64,000 nt of DNA from contig NC_061064.1 of NCBI RefSeq assembly GCF_021917145.1, positions 1,329,185 to 1,393,184 on the forward strand, written 5' to 3'. The position numbers were made by a program, and so were the translations under genes. Origin of the DNA: Hypomesus transpacificus. Lineage: Eukaryota; Chordata; Actinopteri; Osmeriformes; Osmeridae. The notes beneath the pieces are model-generated. The model did no database searches. It saw only the letters and a list, made by a program, of their open reading frames with translations, and had not been told where the DNA came from. Shown in pieces: positions 360-34,495 of this stretch; within the stretch, counting starts at the first letter, position 1, and each line of letters begins with the position of its first letter.

Positions 360-3300
360 CTGCTCACAGACTGCCAGTGCTTGTCAGATGTCTCGACTCA
401 CCCGTATGTCATTAAAGGATTACTAGACTCACAATACCTAATTCTTTCATTTGTCTCAGGTCACAACCTGCCAACACTGCCTCTATTGTTTTCTTTTTGT
501 CCGCATGCAAATATCAAGGATCCACGTAAACACCTCAAAACAAAACACACATCAAGCTGAAAACTGAACTGTCAGTCAGAGTTCAGGAGCTAATCAGCTT
601 TATGGCCCCCTGAGATTCACCCCCTTTCTTCTGGAAGACAAAGCAAGCGAGCCGGCGGATGATGGAGAGATAGGATGATGGAGAGATAGGATGATGGGGG
701 TTTAATGGTAAATATGAGCAGAATATAAGTCAGCAGATAAAACAAGTCACTCAAAGTCATTTCCTCTCCATTTCACACACAGAGATCCAGTTCCATCTGG
801 AGCTGTCCGTCAGGCTGACTGGCAGCTAGGCCCTCTTCACTGATAACGCTGGAAAGCCTGAGCGTTCAATAAGTTATATCCTGTTTTCTATGATAATTAC
901 ACACACACCATGTGACTTTACTATTTTTGGAAAGTACCTCACATTGTGATGTGATGAATTCGAAAGAAAATATATAAACGACATATATAAACTGATTCCT
1001 GTACATTGTGGTTCCTATAGGCTCGCGTAAAGCTGGACTTGGTGTGACCAGAGACTAAAAATGTGAGAGAAGGAAAGAGAGAAAGCGAGAGAGAGACAGA
1101 GAGTAAGCACTGGGAGGAACAGCAGTGACTGCAAAGTGAGATAAACAGCCTGAACCCTGTAGCTATGCGGCAGCTTCCCTGCTTCCAGAGGGTTCTCTGA
1201 GACCGTGCCCATACATCAGTCGTTCCACGGTCGCTGTACTGATACCTCAGTAATGGGCCAGCCCCTCATTGGCTGAGAAGCCTCCTCATTGATCACGATT
1301 GGAGGGCGGGATGACGGCAGGGGCAGGACTAGTGGGCGGTCCTCGTCGTCATCTACAGGTGACACGTTTCCTCCGACAGGTGGGTTTGGCTCGCTGTGTC
1401 ACTTACGATATTAATGGGCCTGTTTGGCACCTCCTTCGCCTGGCTCCGTCTCTTCATCTGGCGCGCCAGACGCCAGTCTGCATTCATTGCACACAAGTCC
1501 ACGCTTGGAGCCACACAGCTGATGGCTGCAGTGTTTGCAGCAGCCGACTCAAACACGTGACCATACACGTCCCTCTCCATTCAAACAGCACGTGGACACT
1601 GGCATTTGTGCATTTGATGTTGGGTTAACCAATGATATCGTTTTAAAGTGGCAGGAAGTCTCCCGGTCATTGCTACATGTTGGATGCATTCTAGGAACTG
1701 CTCAGGGTACAGTTTACTAATCACAATAGACACCAATCCTAGACTCCATTTATTTTCCTTCACTGTAAAGCCGGTGAAAGGCTTCTGTTTCCCCGATCAC
1801 TTGAGCTTTAAAAGTCTTTGAGATTGAGATTGTCTGTTGAGCCATGCTCTCATTGTTCATGGTCTCTCAGGATTCACAGCACACATAGGCTAGATGTATG
1901 TCTCTGTATTTTACTCTTTCAGATCTATCATTTTCATTGCAGTGTTTATAAGCTATCTCCACACCAAAGGCCCCTCTTGCAGCCAGGATTGCTTTCCAGT
2001 CGATTGTGCCTGGACAATCACTGGTTCTATTATCATGAAGGCATTTCTTCATTTCTTCAGGTACAACAGGGTGAGACAGCAGCAGGAGATCTTTATTTAT
2101 TTTCCAGGAAAAAAAAAAAAAGGTTAATAAGAAGAGACATTGCCAAGGTCATTGCTTTCAAATTACAGTTAGCCTGATCTCAAATATCTCTTTTGTCAGC
2201 TGCAAGGGCAGGATAAATAGAGGCAGAGAGAATACCGGGCTTTCGTGAGGCCAAACACCACAAAAGATCCTTTCATTGAACCCTGCAGTCTTCTGTCACT
2301 GCGTGCTTCCTGAATGGAGCTTGGCTGCTGAGCCTTCACTAAACAGCATCTTCATTCTGCTGGAAGAACTCAGAGAGCCGACCTGTTATCATGACCAGGA
2401 CCAAGTCACAAAGGCCTCTATGTAAACCATGCTTGTGTCCAATGCATTTGTAAGTGACCTGTATGTCCGGTCGTTTTGATTTGAGTTTCTTTATCGTACA
2501 GCGGCACGCTACTGATGTATTACCTGAGCAAGATCACACAGGGCAGGACCACAGGCTGTTTACAGTGGAAAGAAGTACCGCTGAGAGAGACAGAGACACA
2601 GAGAGAGACAGAGAGGGGGAGAGAGAGAGGGGGGGGGGAGAGAGAGAGAGACAGAGAGAGAGAGGGGGGAAGAAAAAGGGAAAGAGGAATGGGGGGAGAG
2701 TGAAAGAGAAAGACAGATCGCAGCAGTAAAACCACACTTCCTGTATTTGTGTTGTCCGTGTTCAGAGAGATCCATCAGCAGAGTGAACCCAGCCCTCTCT
2801 CCCTCCACAACGCAATCACCCGAGGCTCTGTCAGCCACAAGGACACTCGCTGAGACAAAGCCTCCGTCCATCCATCCTGCCTCCATGCCAAGGGTAATCT
2901 TGTTCCCTGTTTGTCATATCGGAGACCACAATGAGAGGCGTCATCACTCTCTCCTGGGCCGACAAAGGCAGACAGTGATGGTGGACCGCAAGGGCCCGTC
3001 TGGGAATACAGATATGCTCATCTGCCCATCACCCAGTCCGGTTAAAGGGCTGGGCGGACAGGAACACAGTCCTGTTATCACTTTAATCCAGAGAGAAGAG
3101 AATGACCGTGTTTATCAGCGATGCCTGACACCATCACGATCTCTGAAACAGCCCACTGGTTCCCCTGGACGGAACTTTCTGACCCTCTCTGCAACACTAC
3201 ATCATCTTTAACGTCCTAGCTCTTCAGCTCCAACCTGACCTCACACAAGGTGCCATGTTTACTCTGATACGTACTGCCCTCTGCTGGTTGATCACAGAAC

Positions 3301-9375: not shown

Positions 9376-12300
9376 TCACTGGTCTGGTGCACGCTGGGGC
9401 TCATCGTAAAGCACGACTCGATTTGGATCTGGGGATGGAAAAAGAAAAACACAGGGTTGATAAGTCAGTGAGTTGATACTTTTTGTTGTTTGGTTTGTTA
9501 GCATAACATACAACAACATAAATACATATAAAATAAGTAAATGGGTCAGAGTCCCATACCTTGTTTTTGCAAACTTAAGATGTATCCCATTTCTGTAGGA
9601 CAAAGACACAAACATGGATTATGATAACTGACATGTCAAACTGTTTTACATCCAAGACCAGACCAATAAAAGTAGGTTGAAAGAGAGCTAGAAGGAAATA
9701 TGAACATTTCAGAGATTCATCAAATTTCACTTATAATCAAACAAAGACAACTAGACACTCATTTCAATTTCAAGCGAGTAGATTACAAATTACCTTTAGT
9801 GTGATAATTAACAGCAGCTTTAAGATCAAACGACCCCCAGCTACACCTTCGATCCAGGCTCCTGAGCCGGGCCTGCACCTTGGAAAGCCCCGACTCCAGG
9901 GTGGTCAACGACGACTGGACCGTCTCAGCAGTCGGTTTACAGGAAGCAGCCTGCGATGCAGCCAGACTCTTAGCCTCGCCCTTTGACTTGTCGAGGCCAG
10001 CATGATGAAGGCCGGCTCCTTCTTCCCTCGCCCCTGAAGCAGGGCAGGAAACAGTGGACACACCACCGGGGGTACTAGTCCGTCTGTCCAGGTCTACAGT
10101 AACGCTGGCAGGCTCGGGGCTAGGGGAGCTTGCGTCAGGACATGGCTGGTCTGCAGCGACAGTACACTCCCCTTGAAAAGTGACCGGCAGGGCCTTCCCC
10201 TCCCCACGCTGCTGGCCGCCTCCTCCCTCAGCTCCCATGTTGGGCTCGTTGATGAAAGAGAGACCCCACTGATTGTGGAAGATTTCTCCCAGGCCCTTCT
10301 GATGTGTCTGAGACGCTGGGTTGTCCACTTGACGTGCACTGGGGAGCACAGGTTGCATATTTAAAGGGTTTAAGGGAATGAAAAGAGTACACTTCCTCGT
10401 TTCAAAAGCTGCTGCGGGATTGATTGAGGAGCTACAGTTACTGTCCGAAGAAGATGCTACGTTCTCGCCGCAGGGGAGAGAGTGGGCTGGTGGGATACTA
10501 CTAGCAGCAGAAGCAAAGAAGGTACCACCAGACGGGACGCCGTTTCCATCTCCAGAAATGGGTCCGTTAGTAAAGCTAGCTGAGGTGATGGTTTTCATAG
10601 CAGACATGGGGACCTGTGACAGTCTGATAGGTGCCTGAGGAGCCAGCGACTCTCCTCCAGCTTGCGCTGGCTTGTTTAGGTTTTCCTTCACTTTACTTGC
10701 ATAACTGATCTTGGGCACGATTTTAGCACTGCTATTGTCCACAGGAAACACTGGAGGAGGCTTAAACAAAGTCCAAGAATCCTCTTTAGTTGAGGAAGAG
10801 AGCTTGGCTTTGGTCCGGTCCTCAAACCTTTTACCAGAAGCGCCTGCTGTCTTACTGTCAGAGTCTTTCCTCTGCAGGTCTCCCCTCGCGTCCTCAGGAA
10901 CCGCTGTCCGTCTGGGTAGTGTGTGGACGTCTGCTTTATGGGCTGACTTGGTGCCGTAGGGTCTGGGGCCGGCCCCGGGGTCGCACGCCTCAGGGTCGCA
11001 CGCCTCAGGGCTGGACGCCTCAGATTCGGCCGAGGCGCAGCCGTGCTGCATGTCTCTGTTCCCGTCTCTCGTCACATTCTCACAGGTCTTGATGCCGTTC
11101 CTTCCACCCCTGCGTCTCTTAGGAGTGGTGTATCCACCTTCAGACCCGCTGCCGTCGTGGTCAGGGGCGGGGTCGCCGGAGAAACCGTTGGTGATATAAA
11201 CAGAGTTCACCTCCCCGTTCTGTAGCGAAGCCGAGTCGTTCTTTTCCGATTCCTGACCCTCACAGTGGTGGACGTCCAAGGCCCGGGCCTTGTCATCACT
11301 AGTCATCGTCTTAGTCTGGACCAAGCCGCTCGCGGGTGGAGCAGAGGAGTAAACCTTTTGTGTCGACTTCTGTCTCGCGTTGGCATTTGTCAAATGTCTG
11401 TTACCATTGTTTGTGGTGGCGTGTGCGGTACCAGCTGTGTGATCTGCAGACTGGATCCTTTCCCCCCCAACATCACTGGGGTTTAATTTGCCATTTCCTA
11501 AGAATACAAAATATTACAAACAAATTAGTTGAAATGACCCAACCCTCATCTGTTAGTCTGTACATTTCTCAGTAGTATAGACTCATTGTCCAGGTCAGGA
11601 AAAGTCCACCATGTTAGAGTTGTCAAAGTACAAACTATATTACATTGATTGAAAAGTTTAGTTGATTAAGTAATGTAATTAAGATGATCAATTCTAAATT
11701 AATGTTAGCCAACAAGTCCCAATGGGAATTAAGTCATTATTGTTAAGCTACATTTGGTAACTGGTAAGGTGGTTGCCGTTTTAAGTCGTTTATTGTAATA
11801 AACTAATTTATACTAATAAACTTGTTCAGATGTGCAAAACAAAAAATATCCTTCGTGACATGGGGGCATGCATTTACAAAGTGTTCTTAGCAAACGTTGA
11901 ATTGCTAGCTGACTCCTTGTTTCGTAAGCTTCATGCACATTCATGTTAACTATTTGTGTAAGATCGAAATGTTTGCGTGGCTTCAAGGTTGGTGGCCAGC
12001 CAAGATAGGACTAGGAGATGCAACAGGCCTACTGTGCCTAACCTCAGCTAGCGAGGAAGCTACTGGTTGCAGGCAGCTAGCGCTGGCTAGTTCATATTCG
12101 CTAGTCGGTCTACCGTTTATCACAAATAAAACTCGCATAATAATGAATATTTAATGAAAACATGTAGCTGAGGATAAAGAATAGGCCGTTAAATAGATGC
12201 ATTCCGACTTGAATCTTATAGACACAGTGCACACTGTCAGCTAGCCAGCTAAATAACTGGGATTGGTAGTGAGCTAGCTAGCTAGCATTCATGTTGTAAC

Positions 12301-16474: not shown

Positions 16475-22879
<6,405 letters not shown>

Positions 22880-24780: not shown

Positions 24781-27700
24781 TCAGTCATCGTGAATGTTGA
24801 AGAGCTTGGCCACCTCGTTCAGATCCGTGTGCTCCTCGCCATCCTTGATTATCTGAGGAGACAAAACAGGCTTTCAGAAGACGACAAACAACTTGAAATA
24901 CTAATAAAAAAAATAAAAGAAAAAACTAAAGCACACAGAACTCATCTGAGATGTTCTCTTTCCCTTAGCAACATCGACATCCCTCCCTCCCCCCTCCCTC
25001 TGGCATTCTCCCTCACCTTCCTGGCGATGGGCATCCTGTTGAAGACGTTCCACAGGATGATGCCGACCACCACCTTGTCCCGCAAGTAGAAGATCACCCC
25101 CTTCCCATAGTCGTCCTTCTGCTGCAGGGGGGCGGGGGGCGGGGTGGAGGACGCCACAGGGCTGCTGGCCACCGCCTCCGTCTCACTCTCAGACCTGATC
25201 CCAGTTCCTACACAACCACACACACAACCACACACACGTCCACACACACGTCCACACAATGTTCCTCCCAAAACAGACATGGTTCCTCCGTACCTCATGT
25301 GAGGGCCTCTAAGAGCAGGGCTAAGTAACACAGGGCTAGTGAGGGCCTCTGAGAGCAGGGCTAAGTAACACAGGGCTAGTGAGGGCCTCTGAGAGCAGGG
25401 CTAAGTAACACAAGGCTAGTGAGGGCCTCTGAGAGCAGGGCTAAGTAACACAGGGCTAGTGAGGGCCTCTGAGAGCAGGGCTAAGTAACACAGGGCTAGT
25501 GAGGGCCTCTGAGAGCAGGGCTAAGTAACACAGGGCTAGTGAGGGCCTCTGAGAGCAGGGCTAAGTAACACAGGGCTAGTGAGGGCCTCTGAGAGCAGGG
25601 CTAAGTAACACAGGGCTAGCCAATACAAGACAACATTCCCCAAGTTCCTACCTGACATCTCGGCGGCAGCCCTGGGCGTGTCCTTGGCGGTAGCCTTGGC
25701 AAACACGCCCACGGTGGGCAAGCTGCTGTCCACGATGCCGATGGCCTCGTAGCCCACGTCCGGCCCCAGGTCGCTCCTGCAGGACATCACACTCTTACAG
25801 CTGGGTACCGGTGGGCGCTGCGCTAAAGCCTACTGTGCCTAGTGCACACACGTGTTTCACGTAGCACCAGGATCCAGGAGGAAGGTAGTACAGTCTGTGT
25901 GTCCTGGTTTAGCTGTGTGTGAAATGACATAGAGCCCTCTACCTAGGGACCCCGAGAGAGCAGCTCCTACCAGAACATGGACTGGTGCCAATAAGGCTTG
26001 TTAGCGCCGGTCATGTTCTCCCCGGCCAGCCGGCCGCTGACCACCGCGTGGTCGTGGTGCTCCACCCGCCTGCGGCCCAGCCTGATGTCGTAGAAGCACG
26101 CCGCGTCGCCCGCCTGGAGACACACAGCACAGCATTGCAGCTCCACCGGCCACAACAGCACACATAGGGGACCCTGAGGTGTCTACCCTCCTACCCCTAC
26201 CAGGAGGGCCAGCTGTTGCATTGCTCCTAAGATGTGGAACTCTTGTTTCCATTAGGAAATGCTCTGCTGTCCTGTCCTGTCCTGTCCTGTACTTACCACC
26301 CAGATGTTGGACCTGGCCTGCAGCTCTGCGTTGACCCTGTAGCCCCCGAAGTCTGAGTCGACTTCCAGTCCTGCTGACTTGGCCAGCTCCGTGCTGGGCT
26401 CCAGCCCCACAGCCGCCACCAGGTGGTCCGTCTTCACCTACACGCCCCGCCCACGCGCCACACACGCCCCGCCCCGCAGACACCCCCGCACACGCCCCGC
26501 ACACGCGCCCCGCACACACGCCCCGCACACGCGCCACACACGCCCCGCCCCGCAGACACCCCCGCACACGCCCCGCAGACACGCCCCGCACACACGCCCC
26601 GCCCCGCAGACACGCCCCGCACACACGCCACACACACATGCACAGAGAGGTCATTATAGTGGGAATAACAGGCTTGTTTGAGTTGTGTTTTTCAGGGTTT
26701 GCGACGTACCACACGGCCATCTTTCAGTTTGATTTGGACCTTCCCATCATCAAAGCTCACTTTCTTCACCAGCGCCTCCGTGATCACTCTCACCCCCTCT
26801 GAGGAACAGAACCCAGTGCCAGTCAAGCAGCCTCCAGACACGCCGTCAAACAGTCCCCCCCCCCCCCCAGCAGGAGAACAGCAGCACGTGTTTACCACTC
26901 TTGACTTTCTCCGTGGTCCAGTTGCTCAGGTATTCTGGCAGCACCTTGCCCATGTTGCCCTTCTCAGGATACATCTGGACCACCTCCAGACCGTCTTCAC
27001 TGGCTGTGGGATACATCAACAACATGAGAGACACGCCAACACGCTCTGGTTAGAACACGGGCAGCCAGCACGGGCTGCGGTCAGAGGCTCATTTGCTGCT
27101 TGCTACCTCTGGAGCAATGACTTGAAATTGTGCACCGTTACTGCGAAAATACACCACAAAAGTATTTCGCCTTAGGTCTTACATCTCCTGCCCAGGGCAC
27201 AGGCCAGCTCACTTCCCAGGAACCCTCCTCCAATGATGGTTATGGATTTGATCTCTCTGGAAACCTTCTCCAGAGCCTTAAAGTCATCCACCTAGACATG
27301 GGCAAAAGTCCAGAACTGCTCAGTGGGGGAAAGACCACTTTGTGATTTATTACAAGATTTTCTAGTGTAACTTTCTTGTATTGTTGTCTCTACTGTTAAG
27401 AATGGTGAATTGGGAACATGTGAACTGCGCCAGTTTTCCCTAGTCTAAGACGGAACATTGTGGTTCATGCCAGCGTTCACAAACAACAGCTCCCCCTGCT
27501 GGTAGAAAGGAGAAATAAACCCCCAAGTTGAACGATTACCTTTCTGAAAAGTGTGGTCCTCTTATTCACTTCCTCTCCAGCTCTCTCTATTACCTGCAGG
27601 TTCCTGGGCACACCACCTGGAGGACAGACCACCAGCGGCTCATTCACAACCCACCTGGGCTTATTACTAATTACACCTGAAACTTCAGCCTTGCCATTGT

Positions 27701-30700
27701 AACTTAAGCCGCTGGCTAGCAGGTGTGTTCATGTCTTACCTGTTGCAATCAGACACTTGTCGTAGGAGATCTCCGAGTTATCACTGAGTCTCACTTTGTT
27801 TCCTCTCACATCCATGTGCACCACCTAGGAGAGAGAGAGAACGAGAGAGAGAACAAAATAGAATCTTTTTAACTTTGAAAATAAACTGTCTGTGGAGATG
27901 TACAGAAAGGGCTAGTTTGACAGGAGATGTGATGACATGTTGTGATGAGACTTTGACAGGAGATGTGATGACATGTTGTGATGAGAGTAAGCGACCTTCT
28001 TCCCCGTCATCACGGCCACCCCTCCATTCTCCGCCTTGTCCAGCTCTTCAGGGCTGACGTAGAATGAGGGCGGCTGGAAGTAAATACTGACCACACACAC
28101 ACACAATCAGGTTGTTGTTCTTCAAGGCAGTCCTTCTCAGAACACAGCAGACATTCACTCTCTGAACAACCTCTGAACACCACACATAAACCCCTGTGAC
28201 CTGGGAGTTACAGGGTGACCATGTGTGGTCTTCAGCCCTGGTCCTCAGGGCCCACTGTCCTGCATGTCCCAGATGCTTCCCTGCTCAGACACACCTGCTT
28301 CCAATCAGGCTTCAGCAGAGCTTCTCAACAGCCCATTCACCTGAATCAGGTGTGTTGAAAGAGTGAAACATCTACAACGTAAAGGACAGTGGGCCCTGAG
28401 GACCAGGGTTGAAGACCACTGGTGTAAACTACCGGGCTCCGTTCAAACGAGGAGGGATCCCAGCAGCCCTGCGTGAACCCACCTCCTCTCCTTCCCGTTC
28501 CACTGTTTGAAGCGCAGGGTGTCGGTCACCCCCGGGTCGTCAGAGAACCACAGCTCCTTGGACAGCGGGGGCCTCATGTATGGGAGATCCCCCTCTTCAG
28601 TTACTATCAACACCTGGACACACACACACATACGGTACAAGTCATTAGGACCTTCGAATGTTAACGATAAAGGGAACAATCGATTCCTTTTACAAGGTAT
28701 TCATCTAATTGAGCTGGAGCCTGGTTCTTGACAGGGGCCCTGGCAGGAGAGCTCACTGACCCTGGCTCCTGGGTCCCTGGCACGGATCGACCTGGCGGCT
28801 GCGAAGGAGGCAGTGCCCCCTCCAATCAGGAGGTAGGGGGCGTGAGGGGGGACCGGGAGGGGGGCGGGTGCAGGGGGCTCAGAGACAGGGGTGGCGCTGG
28901 GTTCTTCTGCTGGAGCTGGGGGAGCAGAGAAGAGAGATCACCACACAACCTCCTCCTGGGATACGGACAGAGGCAGCCACAGACAGACCGCCTCACAGGA
29001 CAGACAGACGGACGGACTGAACCATGTGTCTGGGATTATCGGTAGCCGTATGGATGAAATGTTTCAGCACGTATGAAGCCAGTAACCTTAAGAGGGATAA
29101 AAGGAAAGTGAAATGGGGTCAAAATGGTAAATAGGTTCATGTGAGAGCTTTTAGCATTACCAAGAAACACAACACACAGAGCGATAACCTTAAACTTGGG
29201 AGGAGAAATTAAGACAAAACCATGACGGGCGTCAGCGAAACGAAGGAGAGATGTGTTGGAAGTAATGTTATCGTGTTCTGTCTGCCCATTCCCACTCCAG
29301 CCGATCTGGAATCAGGTCTTACCACTCTCTGTCTCAGCTGCAGACTGAGGTTCAGAGCTCTCTGCAGGGGGGCTGTCAGCTGCAGACTGAGGTTCAGAGC
29401 TCTCTGCAGGGGGGCTGTCAGCTGCAGACTGAGGTTCAGAGCTCTCTGCAGGGGGGCTGTCAGCTGCAGACTGAGGTTCAGAGCTCTCTGCAGGGGGGCT
29501 GTCAGCTGCAGACTGAGGTTCAGAGCTCTCTGCAGGGGGGCTGTCAGCTGCAGACTGAGGTTCTGTCAGCACAACCGGAGCATTAGGCAGGGTAGAGAAA
29601 ACTCAACGTGCTTGACGAAAAACGCAACGTGCTTAACGAAAACAAAGACCATCTTCATGCACCTGTCCGAGCGCTTACCGCTGTCCACTACAGGAGACTG
29701 TTCTGTGGGCTCCGAGGAGGGCGGTTCTGCGGCCGTGTCTGGTTCTGGTTCTGGAGCACAACAGCAGAACTGAGAAACAGCTGGTTCCCTAACTGCTGAA
29801 TTACACGTGAACTCTTCATCAGAGTAGTCTTACCACTCTGCACTGGGACAACCAGCGGCTCAGACTGCCTTAGCGCCCTCTGTCTTAGCGCCCTCTGTCT
29901 TGGCGCCCTCTGTCTTGGCGCCCTCTGTCTTGGCGCCCTCTGTCTTAACACCCTCTGTCTTGGCGCCCTCTGTCTTGGCGCCCTCTGTCTTGGCGCCCTC
30001 TGTCTTGGCGCCCTCTGTCTTGGCGCCCTCTGTCTTGGCGCCCTCTGTCTTGGCGCCCTCTGTCTTAACGCCCTCTGTCTTAGCGCCCTCTGTCTTAGCG
30101 CCCTCTGTCTTAGCGCCCTCTGTCTTAGCGCCCTCTGTCTTAGCGCCCTCTGTCTTGGCGCCCTCTGTCTTGGCGCCCTCTGTCTTGGCGCCCTGTCTTG
30201 GCGCCCTCTGTCTTAACGCCCTCTGTCTTAGCGCCCTCTGTCTTAGCGCCCTCTGTCTTAGCGCCCTCTGTCTTGGCGCCCTCTGTCTTAGCGCTCTCTG
30301 TCTTAGCGCTCTCTGTCTTAGCGCTCTCTGTCTTAGCGCTCTGTCTTACCGCCCTCTGTCTTGGCGCCCTCTGTCTTGGCGCCCTCTGTGTTAGCGCTCT
30401 CTGTCTTAGCGCTCTGTCTTAGCGCTCTGTCTTAGCGCTCTGTCTTAGCGCCCTCTGTCTTAGCGCCCTCTGTCTTAGCGCTCTGTCTTAGCGCTCTGTC
30501 TTAGCGCTCTGTCTTAGCGTGCTCTGTCTTAGCGCTCTGTCTTAGCGCTCTGTCTTAGCGCTCTCTGTCTTAGCGCTCTCTGTCTTAGCGCTCTGTCTTA
30601 GCGCGCTCTTGTCGGGTTTCAATCATCTTCAGCTGCAGGGATGTGCAGCCAGGAGGTGGTGCTGCAGACAAAACGTGCATCCTGCTAAACAGAAGACGTT

Positions 30701-33700
30701 TTCTTCTCCATCAGTGCGTCACGCTCACCTTCAGGGGAAACTGCAGGAGTTTCTACAGCAGCAGCTTCAACATCAGGAGGGGTGTCTGTCCCAAAACGGT
30801 TCAAGAAAAAGGGAGAAAAGCTCAACGCTCCAGAAAAGCGTGTTTGAGGAACGAGTGACAACCTGCCGTCCTCTCGTAGCGAACAGCTACATCACGGCAC
30901 AACAGAATCCACCAAGTCACAAGGTGAGTTTGGAGAAGCATGCATTTTAAAAAGTACATTGTTGAAAATATGTTTGTTCAATGGAAAGAATGGTGATAGT
31001 TGAGAACTAAGAAGGAAAACGTGTTGTCGAAGATGGAGAGAGAGGCAGACGTGCAACTAAAAGACCACAGACAGAAGTCCACAAACTCCACAGACATCGC
31101 CACCACCATCCTGTGTTTTAAAGGTTTCTTTGAGTCCTGTTCAATCTCTTTTCCGTAATCCTTCAGCATTCATTCCCAACCGACTATTTGGACATTTGCA
31201 GGCCAGGTTATGGTGGGGTGAGAACCGTAAGAGGAGTTTCAGAGATGCTTGAGAGCAAAGTAGACCTAGGAACCTCTCATCAGTTCATGCAAGTTTGACA
31301 GGAAACAAACTTGCAGAAAAGGGATATGTGAAAGTGTCCTCGAGGATGAGGATGCATGCCAGGGGGAAGAGCAGAGGGTGGAAGACTCAACCACCAGAAG
31401 GAGCATGACACATGCAGAGCTCAGGACAACATGTTAATAAATGCTATATTTAAATATTATTAGATGTTAACTTGTGCCACGGACGCTATTCCCAGCAAAT
31501 GCAGTGAGGACAGAAACAGCTACAGCACTGTGCAAGAGTATTGGACGCAAATGAAGAATTGACTAAAGTAAAGCTAAATTGCTTTAAGATAATGAAATGA
31601 ACTAAAAAATACATATTACAGAAAATATTCATGTTGGAAATCTTTGGGGTGCCTAAAACTTTTGCACAGTACTGAAATTCAGCCTGCATACTGACACATC
31701 GTGAGGGTTAGAATGGATTAGGAATATATGGCTGCCAGGAATCTATCCATACACATATACATCTATTGTCTATGTGCATGTCTGTACAGCTTATATATGT
31801 ATCTATCGTTAGAACCTGAGGCCTGTTCCGTGGTTTCACTGGGGGGGTGTTCCTCTGGGGCGGGGGAAGGGAGGGTCTCCTCCTCGACGGGGAGGGGGGA
31901 CTCGCTCTCAGGGTGTTCCTCAGGGGCAGGGGGGGACTCGCTCGCACCGGCTGGAGGTTCAGAGCCCAACACGAGGGGCTCTTGTCAGTGGAAGATCACA
32001 CGCACATCATGTGTTAGCTTAGCACACACAGGCATACTGGGGAGCACAAATAGGTCCCTTCGGACAGGACAGCCAGACTTAGCAAAAGCCAAGGCAGGGA
32101 GACTAGAGTATGAAGCTAATTAAAGGCCACGATGGAGCAGTGCAAGCCAAATGTTTGTAAGTGTGGATGTATCTACCTGTCAAGCTGTACTCAGGAATCT
32201 CATGTACAGATGTGTATGTGTAGGTTAACTGAGTCATTCTACAGCATCATTGCAACACTAGTGAACCCTGCAATGAATGCGGTTAGGTTCACTTCGAGAT
32301 TGTGGAACCATTGGCGTTTTAGTCTATACGTTAATATCTGAACATTCTTTTAGTGTATTGTGTAACTCTAACTGTTGTAGTCAATTCTTATTGTATGTGT
32401 TTTATATTGTATTTGTTTGTCTTTTGCCATGTTTTGTATTGTGCTATGTTTTTTGTGTGTCCGGAATAAAGAAATAATAATAATAATAATAAGGCGTTAA
32501 TAAAGCAAAACCACACTAAATATTGACTTCTTGAGATTCACTTAGTAGTACATGTTATGATCACTAAATGGGTCTTTATTAATACATGGTTAACAGAGAT
32601 TGCACTAGCAACTCTTTGAAGCAGGTGTCCCTGCATCGACCTCAGGAGATATTTGGGGGGTTTGGTGAACTTGTACGTCTCCACTAACCACTGGTGTAAT
32701 CTGTCCTCATGGGAGGCCTTTTAGAGCTGCAACATCTCAGGATTCATCCAACGTCATAAAAAAGATTATCAACTGTGGTTTAAGATAGCTATATATTGAA
32801 TTATTTGACATTGTTAAAAAGAGGACCGGTATTAATTTTTTATAAATCAATAAAAACTCACCTTCAGTAGTGTCAGCAGCTGGTTCCGCTGTAAGACATC
32901 AAATTTAAACAAGGATCATCCTCAAAAACATTCTTGTCTGACAGTACAATCTCCAACATGACAGGTTGGGAAAAGTGCAACAGATCAGGCTCTTCTGTCA
33001 CATAAGTGCAGATAAGAACGGATTACCTGGTGACTCCGTTGACAGGTATGTTTCTGGCTGATCTGGGGCAGACTTATTTGGTCTGGAAGCTATTTCTTCA
33101 AGTCGATCATTATATCTATCTTTGTCTCCTTTGATGGTACGGTATGCCTGTGAAAACATGTTCATGACTTTGCATTAAACTTTTGACAGCTTGGTTTATG
33201 GTATTTTGTCAGGGTAAATGTAGCATTGAATTAAAACATAATTATTACGATAAACATAAAACAAAACCGCCGACTTCCCTTGACAATCCAGATGTGTCTA
33301 TTAAATTTGGCTCTTAGAGCTCGTCTGCACCGTCAACAACAAAACATACTCAAACCAACAACTACGCCATTATTACTCAAACCTACAACTACAGCAAATA
33401 CGCCATTATTGACATATATTTCTTGTCGGGGTACTTACATATATTCCTCCCCCGAGGCAGGCTGCTCCTACCAGGAGGAAATAGATTTTGTTTTCGTTGC
33501 CACCTGCTGGAGCTTCTGATGACATGCGTGCCAGAGGAAGCAACACCGGACTTCTCTCGTTGTTCAACACTAATTCAAAACATTATTTTAGGTTAGAATG
33601 GAGCATTAATTACGAAGCAAGTGTATGATGATGTATTTAACGTGCAAAATTTGTGAGCACATTCTGAATACGAAATAAACTAATCTGTCCGTTGACCTAA

Positions 33701-34495
33701 CATTGCCTTAAAATCAGTCATAACGCAACCGCTGGCCAAGTTATGCATGTTACAGTTGTCAAAATGCATTCAAAGCTAGCTAGCCCCCAGTTCAATCACA
33801 GATTTACCTTTAGCGTTAGTTAGCAAGTTGGCATTTATTTAATTTTAATACATCGTAATACCATACTGACAACTAATTTCAGACTATACAGTGAGCCCGC
33901 GACGCTTAACCAGCACCACGTAGCTAACTTTGCCTTTGGTGGTGGTCAGTGTGCACACATGACGAGAAACGACCTTGGGCTTGAAGGAAAGCCTGCAATA
34001 TGACAGCGCCACGTTTATCTTACTATCTGAAAGTGAAAAGTGTGTCAATCTTGCAGTTAACTGAAATTTTTGCTTATTCATTCATTGCTCAAGCTGATAA
34101 AGCCGGTGTTTTATAATGGCCATGTGGATTGGTGGGTATAGAGTCCCTAGATATCTAGCTCCAACAAGCTAGCTAATAATTATCTAAACTACGTTATTTA
34201 TTTAGCTAGCTATTTAGCAAGTCGCCATAGACCAGCAAGCCAGCCCATGTCCAACTTTGTCATGTCTTAAAATCAAATATCCCATTGACATTCTCTGTTA
34301 AATTGTTTCCTATATCCAGAGCAGTGACATTAGCTAGAGCTAGCTAGGGTATCAGTGTTTCGTTAGCCAGGACTCGGAACAAGCTGTCGAGTGCAGACAG
34401 TACTTGCCTGCTCTCCTTGTGTTTTGCCGGCACAAAGTGGAGGAGGCTCTGGTGAGCGGGGCCAGCTTTCTCCACATCGTTCTACACTTCAGCAT
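24781..34495 (-). CDS. aifm1: Apoptosis-inducing factor 1, mitochondrial, with enlarged linker
   Basis: Twenty-one coding exons: 34495-34408, 33569-33439, 33147-33027, 32888-32862, 31980-31816, 30785-30729, 29750-29679, 29562-29323, 28915-28761, 28613-28483, 28086-27996, 27824-27740, 27616-27540, 27291-27183, 27003-26896, 26798-26710, 26437-26297, 26113-25971, 25776-25652, 25207-25017 and 24852-24781. The total is 2418 nt or 805 residues. AIFM1 is an FAD/NADH oxidoreductase of the mitochondrial intermembrane space needed for respiratory chain assembly, and it moves to the nucleus in cell death. Seen here: an Arg-rich targeting peptide ([16 protein letters not shown]), a membrane helix ([16 protein letters not shown]), FAD motif [18 protein letters not shown] motif [16 protein letters not shown], and the C-terminal [16 protein letters not shown]. 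Human AIFM1 has 613 residues; most of the extra length is five Pro/Glu/Ser-rich exons before the FAD motif. The first donor is GC rather than GT. Confidence 0.93.
25303..25620. repeat. 40-bp minisatellite, about eight copies, aifm1 intron
   Basis: Tandem unit starting GTGAGGGCCTCTGAGAGCAG, then GGCTAAGTAACACAGGGCTA. Copies are almost identical. It lies between exons 25776-25652 and 25207-25017. Confidence 0.95.
26440..26640. repeat. C-rich CACGCCCCGC minisatellite, aifm1 intron
   Basis: Irregular mix of ACACGCCCCGC, CCCGCAGACAC and ACGCGCCACAC units. The acceptor of aifm1 exon 26437-26297 lies at its edge. Confidence 0.9.
27912..27987. repeat. 35-bp direct duplication in aifm1 intron
   Basis: The phrase TTGACAGGAGATGTGATGAC plus ATGTTGTGATGAGA occurs twice, ending close to the donor of aifm1 exon 28086-27996. 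Confidence 0.8.
28220..28421. mobile_element. hAT-like MITE with ~40-bp terminal inverted repeats
   Basis: The left end (TGGTCTTCAGCCCTGGTCCT and onward) and right end (AGGACCAGGGTTGAAGACCA) are inverted copies over about 40 bases, enclosing roughly 120 bases. The end sequence resembles CAGTGGTCTTCAACCC hAT-type elements of fish. No matching 8-bp target duplication is visible, so exact ends are uncertain. It lies in the aifm1 intron between exons 28613-28483 and 28086-27996. Confidence 0.65.
29323..29562 (-). repeat. aifm1: Coding 42-bp tandem repeat inside an aifm1 exon
   Basis: Five near-perfect 42-base units plus a partial copy encode the 14-residue unit [14 protein letters not shown]. 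The exon is 240 bases, starts and ends in phase 1, and has a clean acceptor (GTGCTGACAG) and donor (GTAAGACC). Unit number could vary between individuals without shifting frame. Confidence 0.85.
29834..29865 (-). other. Unplaced exon-like segment in aifm1
   Basis: Reads [11 protein letters not shown] and ends at a strong donor (GTAAGAC) in phase 1, like the neighbouring linker exons. The only nearby acceptors, at the edge of the 15-bp repeat, give the wrong entry phase. It is therefore left out of the gene model. Confidence 0.3.
29868..30612. repeat. 15/13-bp minisatellite (GCGCCCTCTGTCTTG), aifm1 intron
   Basis: About 50 tandem units; the left two thirds are mainly 15-mers, the right third mixes 13-mers and 15-mers. 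On the minus strand the 15-mer could read KTEGA, but the 13-mers and a stop at the left edge break the frame, so I treat it as intronic. Confidence 0.9.
31523..31674. mobile_element. Short MITE with 27-bp imperfect terminal inverted repeats
   Basis: Left end CAGCACTGTGCAAGAGTATT and right end (reverse complement) CAGTACTGTGCAAAAGTTTT are imperfect inverted copies about 150 bases apart. This type of end (CTGTGCAAAAGTTTTAGGCA) is common in fish genomes. It lies in an aifm1 intron. Confidence 0.6.

What the first reader, a model, noticed from the sequence alone, without database searches (positions are those of the whole stretch)
29323..32888. aifm1 linker enlarged by a cassette of symmetric phase-1 exons
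Between the membrane-helix exons and the FAD-binding exon, human AIFM1 has a short linker. Here five extra exons (27, 165, 57, 72 and 240 bases) fit perfectly. All start and end in phase 1, all have usable splice sites, and all encode Pro/Glu/Ser/Ala-rich acidic sequence (for example [35 protein letters not shown]). Symmetric exons can be gained, lost or skipped without frame change, so the distance between the inner-membrane anchor and the enzyme domain could be tunable. The 805-residue total is about 190 longer than human.
Basis: partly seen in the sequence, partly recalled or inferred. Interest (0 to 1): 0.75.

Follow-up and report, generated by a model that had tools for sequence, protein, structure and literature searches.

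The report
Long acidic tether in fish AIFM1
A fish mitochondrial enzyme gene appears to carry four or five extra, frame-neutral exons that would lengthen the floppy acidic tether between its membrane anchor and its enzyme domain; the exons look real, but whether the fish tunes the tether's length by splicing is untested.

Summary
A 21-exon aifm1 model on the minus strand (34495-24781) joins in frame into 805 residues; five extra exons (27, 165, 57, 72, 240 bp), all phase 1-1, sit between the anchor exon and the FAD exon. They add 187 residues, net charge -47, no Lys or Arg. Candidate symmetric exons coding acidic P/E/S/A/T/D/Q-rich peptide number 5 here in phase 1 (four of the exons and a 39-bp piece of the 165-bp one), and 0 in phases 0 and 2, antisense, other aifm1 introns and the rest of the window; the criterion was set after seeing the exons. 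The 165-bp exon is weak: its donor scores below all 14 certain GT donors. The 240-bp exon is 5.5 perfect 42-bp repeats. Genome repeat matches fall in introns, not in the exons. Comparison with human alone probably overstates the oddity: Pfam's AIF-MLS profile seems to have a low-complexity stretch at this place. Most likely a disordered spacer extended by in-frame exons; tuning by splicing is plausible but untested. No cDNA and no other fish gene could be consulted.

The parts
34408..34495 (-). aifm1 exon 1 (start codon); GC donor (GAGCAG|gcaagt), ends phase 1
33439..33569 (-). aifm1 exon 2, membrane-anchor region
33027..33147 (-). aifm1 exon 3, end of anchor and start of linker, ends phase 1
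   Evidence: alignment to human and mouse AIFM1 chains
32862..32888 (-). extra exon 4, 27 bp, phase 1-1, AEPAADTTE; acceptor 2.3, donor 8.1
31816..31980 (-). extra exon 5, 165 bp, phase 1-1, weak sites (acceptor -1.7, donor -4.4); other in-frame acceptors at 31950 (-1.1) and 31854 (6.7), other in-frame donor after 31840 (-2.7)
30729..30785 (-). extra exon 6, 57 bp, phase 1-1, [19 protein letters not shown]; acceptor 0.0, donor 6.5
29679..29750 (-). extra exon 7, 72 bp, phase 1-1, [24 protein letters not shown]; acceptor 3.8, donor 4.2
29323..29562 (-). extra exon 8, 240 bp, phase 1-1, coding minisatellite: five identical 42-bp (14-codon) units [14 protein letters not shown] and a partial sixth
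28761..28915 (-). aifm1 exon 9, FAD-binding exon; it opens with [27 protein letters not shown], of the cassette's composition
24781..28613 (-). aifm1 exons 10-21, conserved oxidoreductase and AIF_C region
29865..30609 (.). intron 6 minisatellite, 15 bp x 51, 93% matches; similar stretches elsewhere in the genome
32122..32492 (.). intron 4 stretch with copies elsewhere in the genome
31565..31674 (.). intron 5 stretch with copies elsewhere in the genome

Best explanation
This is the fish orthologue of AIFM1, with its membrane-to-enzyme linker lengthened by at least four, probably five, coding exons. The product would be an unstructured, strongly acidic spacer: up to 254 residues from the end of the anchor to the FAD domain instead of 67 without the cassette. 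It would let the flavoenzyme stay anchored in the inner membrane while reaching further into the intermembrane space. The exons are frame-neutral and end alike, so gain, loss or skipping of any of them is tolerated, and exon 8 can also change by 14 residues at a time through gain or loss of 42-bp units. Shown here: exon structure, phase, composition, absence of detected genome copies of the exons. Inferred: that they are spliced into mRNA, the spacer role, and the reach (roughly 6.6 nm to 14.4 nm by polymer scaling). Not shown: any regulated change of length.
For: In-frame gene model: 16 exons, the number implied for mouse by PMC8048367 (passages), plus 5. Composition plus splice sites: 5 candidates in phase 1 (four exact exons and a 39-bp piece of exon 5) against 0 in phases 0 and 2, antisense, other introns and 117.8 kb of window; at a much looser splice cut (-7), 5 against 5 in all phases together in those 117.8 kb, and 200 shuffles give mean 0.145, max 2. 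At acceptor >= 0 and donor >= 4: 4 non-overlapping phase-1 candidates, the four exons, against mean 0.24, max 2 in 300 shuffles and 9 in 117.8 kb of window. By the scores, 4 of 5 cassette exons pass that cut and 3 of 14 certain internal exons do. The certain FAD exon opens with the same composition (85% PESATDQ; cassette 92%; rest of protein 41%) and charge-hydropathy lies on the disordered side (0.381 against boundary 0.504). Of 39 genome matches to the interval, 38 are not the locus itself and all 38 fall in introns 4, 5 and 6. A published finder using composition plus splice sites recovered 94% of annotated human titin PEVK exons (PMC6469411 passages).
Against: No cDNA. The splice-score sum alone is only modestly better than chance, and phase 0 gives as many candidates; at acceptor >= 0 and donor >= 4 phases 0 and 2 also give 2 and 1. 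Cut-offs and composition criterion were set after seeing the exons, and the splice tables are recalled. Codon usage trained on the certain exons puts the true frame first of three sense frames in only 2 of 5 exons, and cassette GC3 is 0.48 against 0.72. Exon 5's donor is poor.
Confidence: 0.72

Rival explanations
1. Splicing-tuned tether: tissues or conditions include different exon subsets, so the distance between anchor and enzyme (and perhaps CHCHD4/MIA40 docking or release) is regulated. This is the best explanation plus regulation.
For: All 32 subsets stay in frame with unchanged junction residues and give 32 distinct linker lengths from 67 to 254. Other AIFM1 isoforms arise by splicing of exons 2 and 3 in mouse (PMC8048367 passages). 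Tissue-specific exons in human often encode disordered segments (PMC3437557 abstract). Exon 8 holds four internal in-frame acceptors scoring like its true one.
Against: Symmetry alone does not show skipping. Four of the five exons have splice-score sums at about or above the median of the certain exons, which suits constitutive inclusion. No transcript data.
Confidence: 0.2
2. Four exons are real and the 165-bp exon 5 is a decayed, rarely used or differently bounded exon.
For: Donor CAG|gttcta scores -4.4, below all 14 certain GT donors of the gene (minimum -2.2), and acceptor -1.7. Several alternative in-frame boundaries.
Against: Its acidic P/E-rich stretch in the right frame (87.5% PESATDQ over 40 codons) ranks third of 777 open stretches in the window. 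Certain exons 2, 17 and 19 have worse acceptors.
Confidence: 0.35
3. The exons are ordinary across fishes: a long low-complexity linker is the general state and mammals have the short version.
For: Pfam AIF-MLS is 192 positions long and its second half takes P/E/S/A-rich sequence: 6 of 6 shuffled cassettes reach profile positions 166-185, while 5 of 5 generic replacements stop at 81. I recall longer-than-human fish AIFM1 entries, but no call confirms it.
Against: The Pfam signal is composition only: real order 28.3 bits, shuffles 16.1 to 34.0; the real sequence without exon 5 stops at 81. Two of 3 neutral low-complexity replacements also reach 176 and one of 2 basic ones 125. No other fish gene was seen.
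Confidence: 0.55
4. Not exons at all: low-complexity stretches in a large intron that happen to be open in phase 1.
For: The gene's introns are rich in minisatellites; exon 8 is itself an array, open in a second sense frame by its codon scores and sequence, and codon usage does not discriminate the frame.
Against: Five in one phase and none in the other two, antisense or elsewhere by the composition test; good paired sites at exact boundaries for four of them; no detected genome copies of the exons where introns have them.
Confidence: 0.08

Closest known systems
Mammalian AIFM1 (AIF)
   Same: Orthologous oxidoreductase and AIF_C domains (best PDB match 891 bits to an AIFM1 chain), same anchor and linker position, 16 shared exons by inference.
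   Different: From AYKT to the FLLIGGG motif the 8d3j chain has 50 residues (counted on the alignment); the equivalent here is 67 without the cassette and 254 with it.
Mouse AIF2 and AIF3 splice forms
   Same: Isoforms made in the same N-terminal region by exon choice (PMC8048367 passages).
   Different: They change or remove the anchor (exon 2B; loss of exons 2 and 3), not the linker length.
Titin PEVK segment
   Same: Many short, repetitive, Pro/Glu-rich, alternatively spliced exons that are hard to annotate without composition cues (PMC6469411 passages).
   Different: Unrelated muscle protein; Lys-rich as its name says, while this cassette has no Lys.
Coding minisatellites
   Same: Exon 8 is a perfect 42-bp array, a multiple of three; copy-number variation of coding tandem repeats is described in human genes (PMC1273636, search listing only).
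   Different: Whether this array varies between individuals is unknown.

Membership tests
AIFM1 (apoptosis-inducing factor 1) | C-terminal AIF_C domain (PF14721) | tested here: met
   197.5 bits against cut-off 25.9, residues 659-786
AIFM1 (apoptosis-inducing factor 1) | FAD/NADH oxidoreductase core (PF07992) and closest similarity to AIFM1 chains | tested here: met
   173.7 bits against 26.1; the best 21 PDB sequences are AIFM1 entries, up to 891 bits
AIFM1 (apoptosis-inducing factor 1) | N-terminal AIF-MLS profile (PF14962) | tested here: inconclusive
   Below the curated cut-off of 29.9 bits though E-values are low: 28.6 bits (1.5e-6) for the long form, 26.4 (7.4e-6) for an N-terminal piece without the cassette
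AIFM1 (apoptosis-inducing factor 1) | Mitochondrial import, inner-membrane anchoring, CHCHD4 binding | not testable with these tools
   needs protein experiments
Alternatively spliced disordered linker exons (PEVK-like arrangement) | Symmetric in-frame exons coding low-complexity, disordered-type sequence | tested here: met
   in the model all five are phase 1-1; 92% PESATDQ and charge-hydropathy on the disordered side; exon 5's boundaries are uncertain
Alternatively spliced disordered linker exons (PEVK-like arrangement) | Transcripts with different exon subsets | not testable with these tools
   no transcript data held
Transposon-derived (exonised) exons | Exon sequence has copies elsewhere in the genome | tested here: not met
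   38 of 38 non-self genome matches lie in introns 4, 5 and 6, none in the five exons; only best candidates are scored and simple repeats are skipped, so exon 8's array is less well tested; a separate exon 8 query did not complete

The most novel reading that the evidence does not exclude
AIFM1 in this fish lineage is held on a splice-adjustable, strongly acidic, Lys/Arg-free tether of 67 to 254 residues. Regulated exon choice and 42-bp copy number would set how far the NADH-sensing enzyme and its import partner reach from the inner membrane, and a protein cut near the site equivalent to mammalian residue 103 would leave with a long acidic tail attached.
Probability: 0.15. Interest if true: 0.7.

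Novelty: new variant of a known kind. Interest (0 to 1): 0.38.

Why it matters
AIFM1 links NADH sensing, disulfide-relay import and cell death. A gene that lengthens its membrane-to-enzyme linker nearly fourfold (67 to 254 residues) with frame-neutral exons offers a natural way to ask whether tether length matters. There is also a practical warning: residues 99-342 form one 244-residue tryptic peptide, so ordinary tryptic proteomics would hardly see this linker, and short repetitive exons of this kind are hard to annotate automatically, as shown for titin (PMC6469411 passages).

Tried and rejected
Codon-usage scoring of frames, trained on the certain exons, was uninformative: the true frame is best of three sense frames in 2 of 5 exons. 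Splice-score sum alone was only modestly above background. The apparent Pfam AIF-MLS extension over the cassette was rejected as sequence-specific evidence because shuffled cassettes do as well; it was kept only as evidence on the profile's composition. Origin of the exons by duplication of one another: for the 15 pairs of exons 4-9 with 30-base flanks the best ungapped 24-base match is 14 to 17 of 24, without a consistent register, so not supported. A retrocopy that would reveal splicing: 13 of 13 protein matches in the genome fall in this one gene. Paper searches aimed at fish aifm1 listed 7, 16, 3 and 2 papers; from titles and abstract starts none concerns linker exons, and I did not read them all. 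One search (15 of 3,102 listed) gave nothing on this point, on cleavage sites, returned no paper. NCBIfam gave nothing.
Full report
Gene model. Reading the minus strand from 34495 to 24781 gives 21 exons joining to 2418 bases, 805 residues, no internal stop. All introns are GT-AG except intron 1, which is GC-AG (GAGCAG|gcaagt). Pfam finds AIF_C (197.5 bits) and Pyr_redox_2 (173.7 bits) above their cut-offs, and the closest solved structures are AIFM1 chains. The passages seen of the AIF3 paper imply 16 exons in mouse (PMC8048367), so this model is those 16 plus 5. In the window's own genome (437 Mb, 376 contigs) the FAD exon has one match and the 478-residue oxidoreductase part has 13, all in this gene.

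The five exons. They lie between exon 3 (33147-33027) and exon 9 (28915-28761), with lengths 27, 165, 57, 72 and 240 bp, each phase 1 to phase 1. They add 187 residues: 41 Pro, 37 Glu, 35 Ser, 31 Ala, net charge -47, no Lys or Arg. Residues 99-342 form one 244-residue tryptic peptide. From AYRTIK to the FAD motif there are 254 residues with the cassette and 67 without; the same distance is 50 in the human chain 8d3j, counted on the alignment. Exons 3 to 8 all end in G, and all 32 inclusion patterns give different, in-frame linker lengths.

Chance. Splice matrices were recalled human-like frequencies. With acceptor >= 0 and donor >= 4, the interval 33026-28916 gives 9 candidate phase-1 exons that reduce to 4 non-overlapping ones, the 27-, 57-, 72- and 240-bp exons. 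Its antisense and the gene's other introns give none, 117.8 kb of window (plus strand whole, minus strand outside the gene) give 9, and 300 shuffles give mean 0.24, max 2. These cut-offs were chosen after scoring the exons. At the same cut-offs the interval holds 2 phase-0 and 1 phase-2 candidates, and with a simple sum the excess is modest (sum >= 4: 4 against 1.22 in 60 shuffles, 1 antisense and 1.61 per 4.1 kb elsewhere; phase 0 gives 5 and phase 2 gives 2). Adding the composition seen in the certain FAD exon leader separates them: 5 in phase 1 (four exact exons and the 39-bp stretch 31854-31816 within exon 5) and 0 in phases 0 and 2, antisense, 3.8 kb of other introns and the 117.8 kb. At a much looser splice cut (-7) the interval still gives 5, now with the full 165-bp exon and slightly longer versions of exons 6 and 8; the 117.8 kb give 5 in all phases together, and 200 shuffles give mean 0.145, max 2. 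Only symmetric exons of 24-300 bp were scanned.

Exon 5. The 165-bp exon is the weak one. Its donor scores -4.4, below the lowest of 14 certain GT donors (-2.2, exon 11), and its acceptor -1.7, although certain exons 2, 17 and 19 are worse on the acceptor side (-5.7, -6.9, -2.3). In-frame alternatives exist. Its coding content is striking: 87.5% PESATDQ over 40 codons, third of 777 open stretches of the window. I read it as a real but possibly rarely used, differently bounded or decaying exon.

Exon 8. It is five identical 42-bp units and a partial sixth. Arrays in the gene's introns have other unit lengths, among them 15, 36 and 40 bp. Four internal in-frame acceptors (exon starts 29505, 29463, 29421, 29379) score 1.2, like the true one. 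A second sense frame of this exon is open too, by its sequence; the frame is fixed only by splicing phase.

Origin. Of 39 genome matches to the interval's DNA, one is the locus itself and the other 38 fall in three intron stretches (query 669-1039, 1487-1596 and 2563-3286, that is window 32492-32122, 31674-31565 and 30598-29875). None touches an exon. The exons are thus not copies of a repeat that this search can detect; it scores only the best candidates and skips simple repeats. They show no clear similarity to one another at DNA level. Codon usage neither supports nor excludes coding.

Family context. The Pfam AIF-MLS profile (192 positions) aligns to the anchor part (residues 42-92, profile 30-81) without the cassette. 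It reaches profile 175 in the full protein, and in 330-residue pieces 144 with the real cassette, 181 without exon 8, 185 without exon 6, but only 81 without exon 5. Six of six shuffled cassettes reach positions 166-185 with 16.1 to 34.0 bits (real 28.3), so order does not matter. Five of five replacements of generic composition stop at 81; of three neutral low-complexity ones two reach 176 and one 82; of two basic ones one stops at 81 and one at 125. The profile therefore seems to hold a low-complexity stretch at this place, which suggests that long linkers are already part of the family and that mammals are on the short side. That is inference; no fish sequence could be consulted.

Mechanism. 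The best reading is a disordered acidic spacer. In the alignment to human AIFM1 (numbering taken from the 78-613 construct named in PMC11832770), human residue 103 lies opposite fish residue 93, ahead of the cassette, which starts at 114. A 103-residue truncation is the 57-kDa marker in PMC8048367. That release cuts AIF near there is recalled, from no call. A protein cut there would keep the spacer on the enzyme side. AIF with CHCHD4 forms an import platform anchored at the inner membrane (PMC11832770 passages), so a longer spacer would widen the volume that this pair can sample; simple scaling gives about 6.6 nm without and 14.4 nm with the cassette. None of this is tested. The passages of PMC11976965 found held no mention of the linker.

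Verdict. Confirmed anatomy, one weak exon, plausible but untested tuning, and a comparison with human alone that probably makes it look stranger than it is.

Noticed in passing
34408-34407 (minus strand): Exon 1 of aifm1 ends in a GC donor (GAGCAG|gcaagt).
   Followed up: no
29865-30609, 25299-25619, 26440-26644: Large intron arrays in aifm1: 15 bp x 51, 40 bp x 8, and a G+C-rich array with 11-, 13- and 76-bp periods.
   Followed up: partly
29379-29562 (minus strand): Exon 8 holds four internal in-frame phase-1 acceptors scoring like the true one, so unit-wise shortening by splicing is possible in principle.
   Followed up: no
19215-20087: A tandem-repetitive stretch that is open over about 200 codons or more in two frames on each strand.
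   Followed up: no
9783-11393 (minus strand): A 536-residue open frame that resembles NUFIP2 (name recalled, not searched).
   Followed up: no
20312-20431 (minus strand): An open stretch of nearly pure Ser/Pro (97.5% PESATDQ over 40 codons).
   Followed up: no
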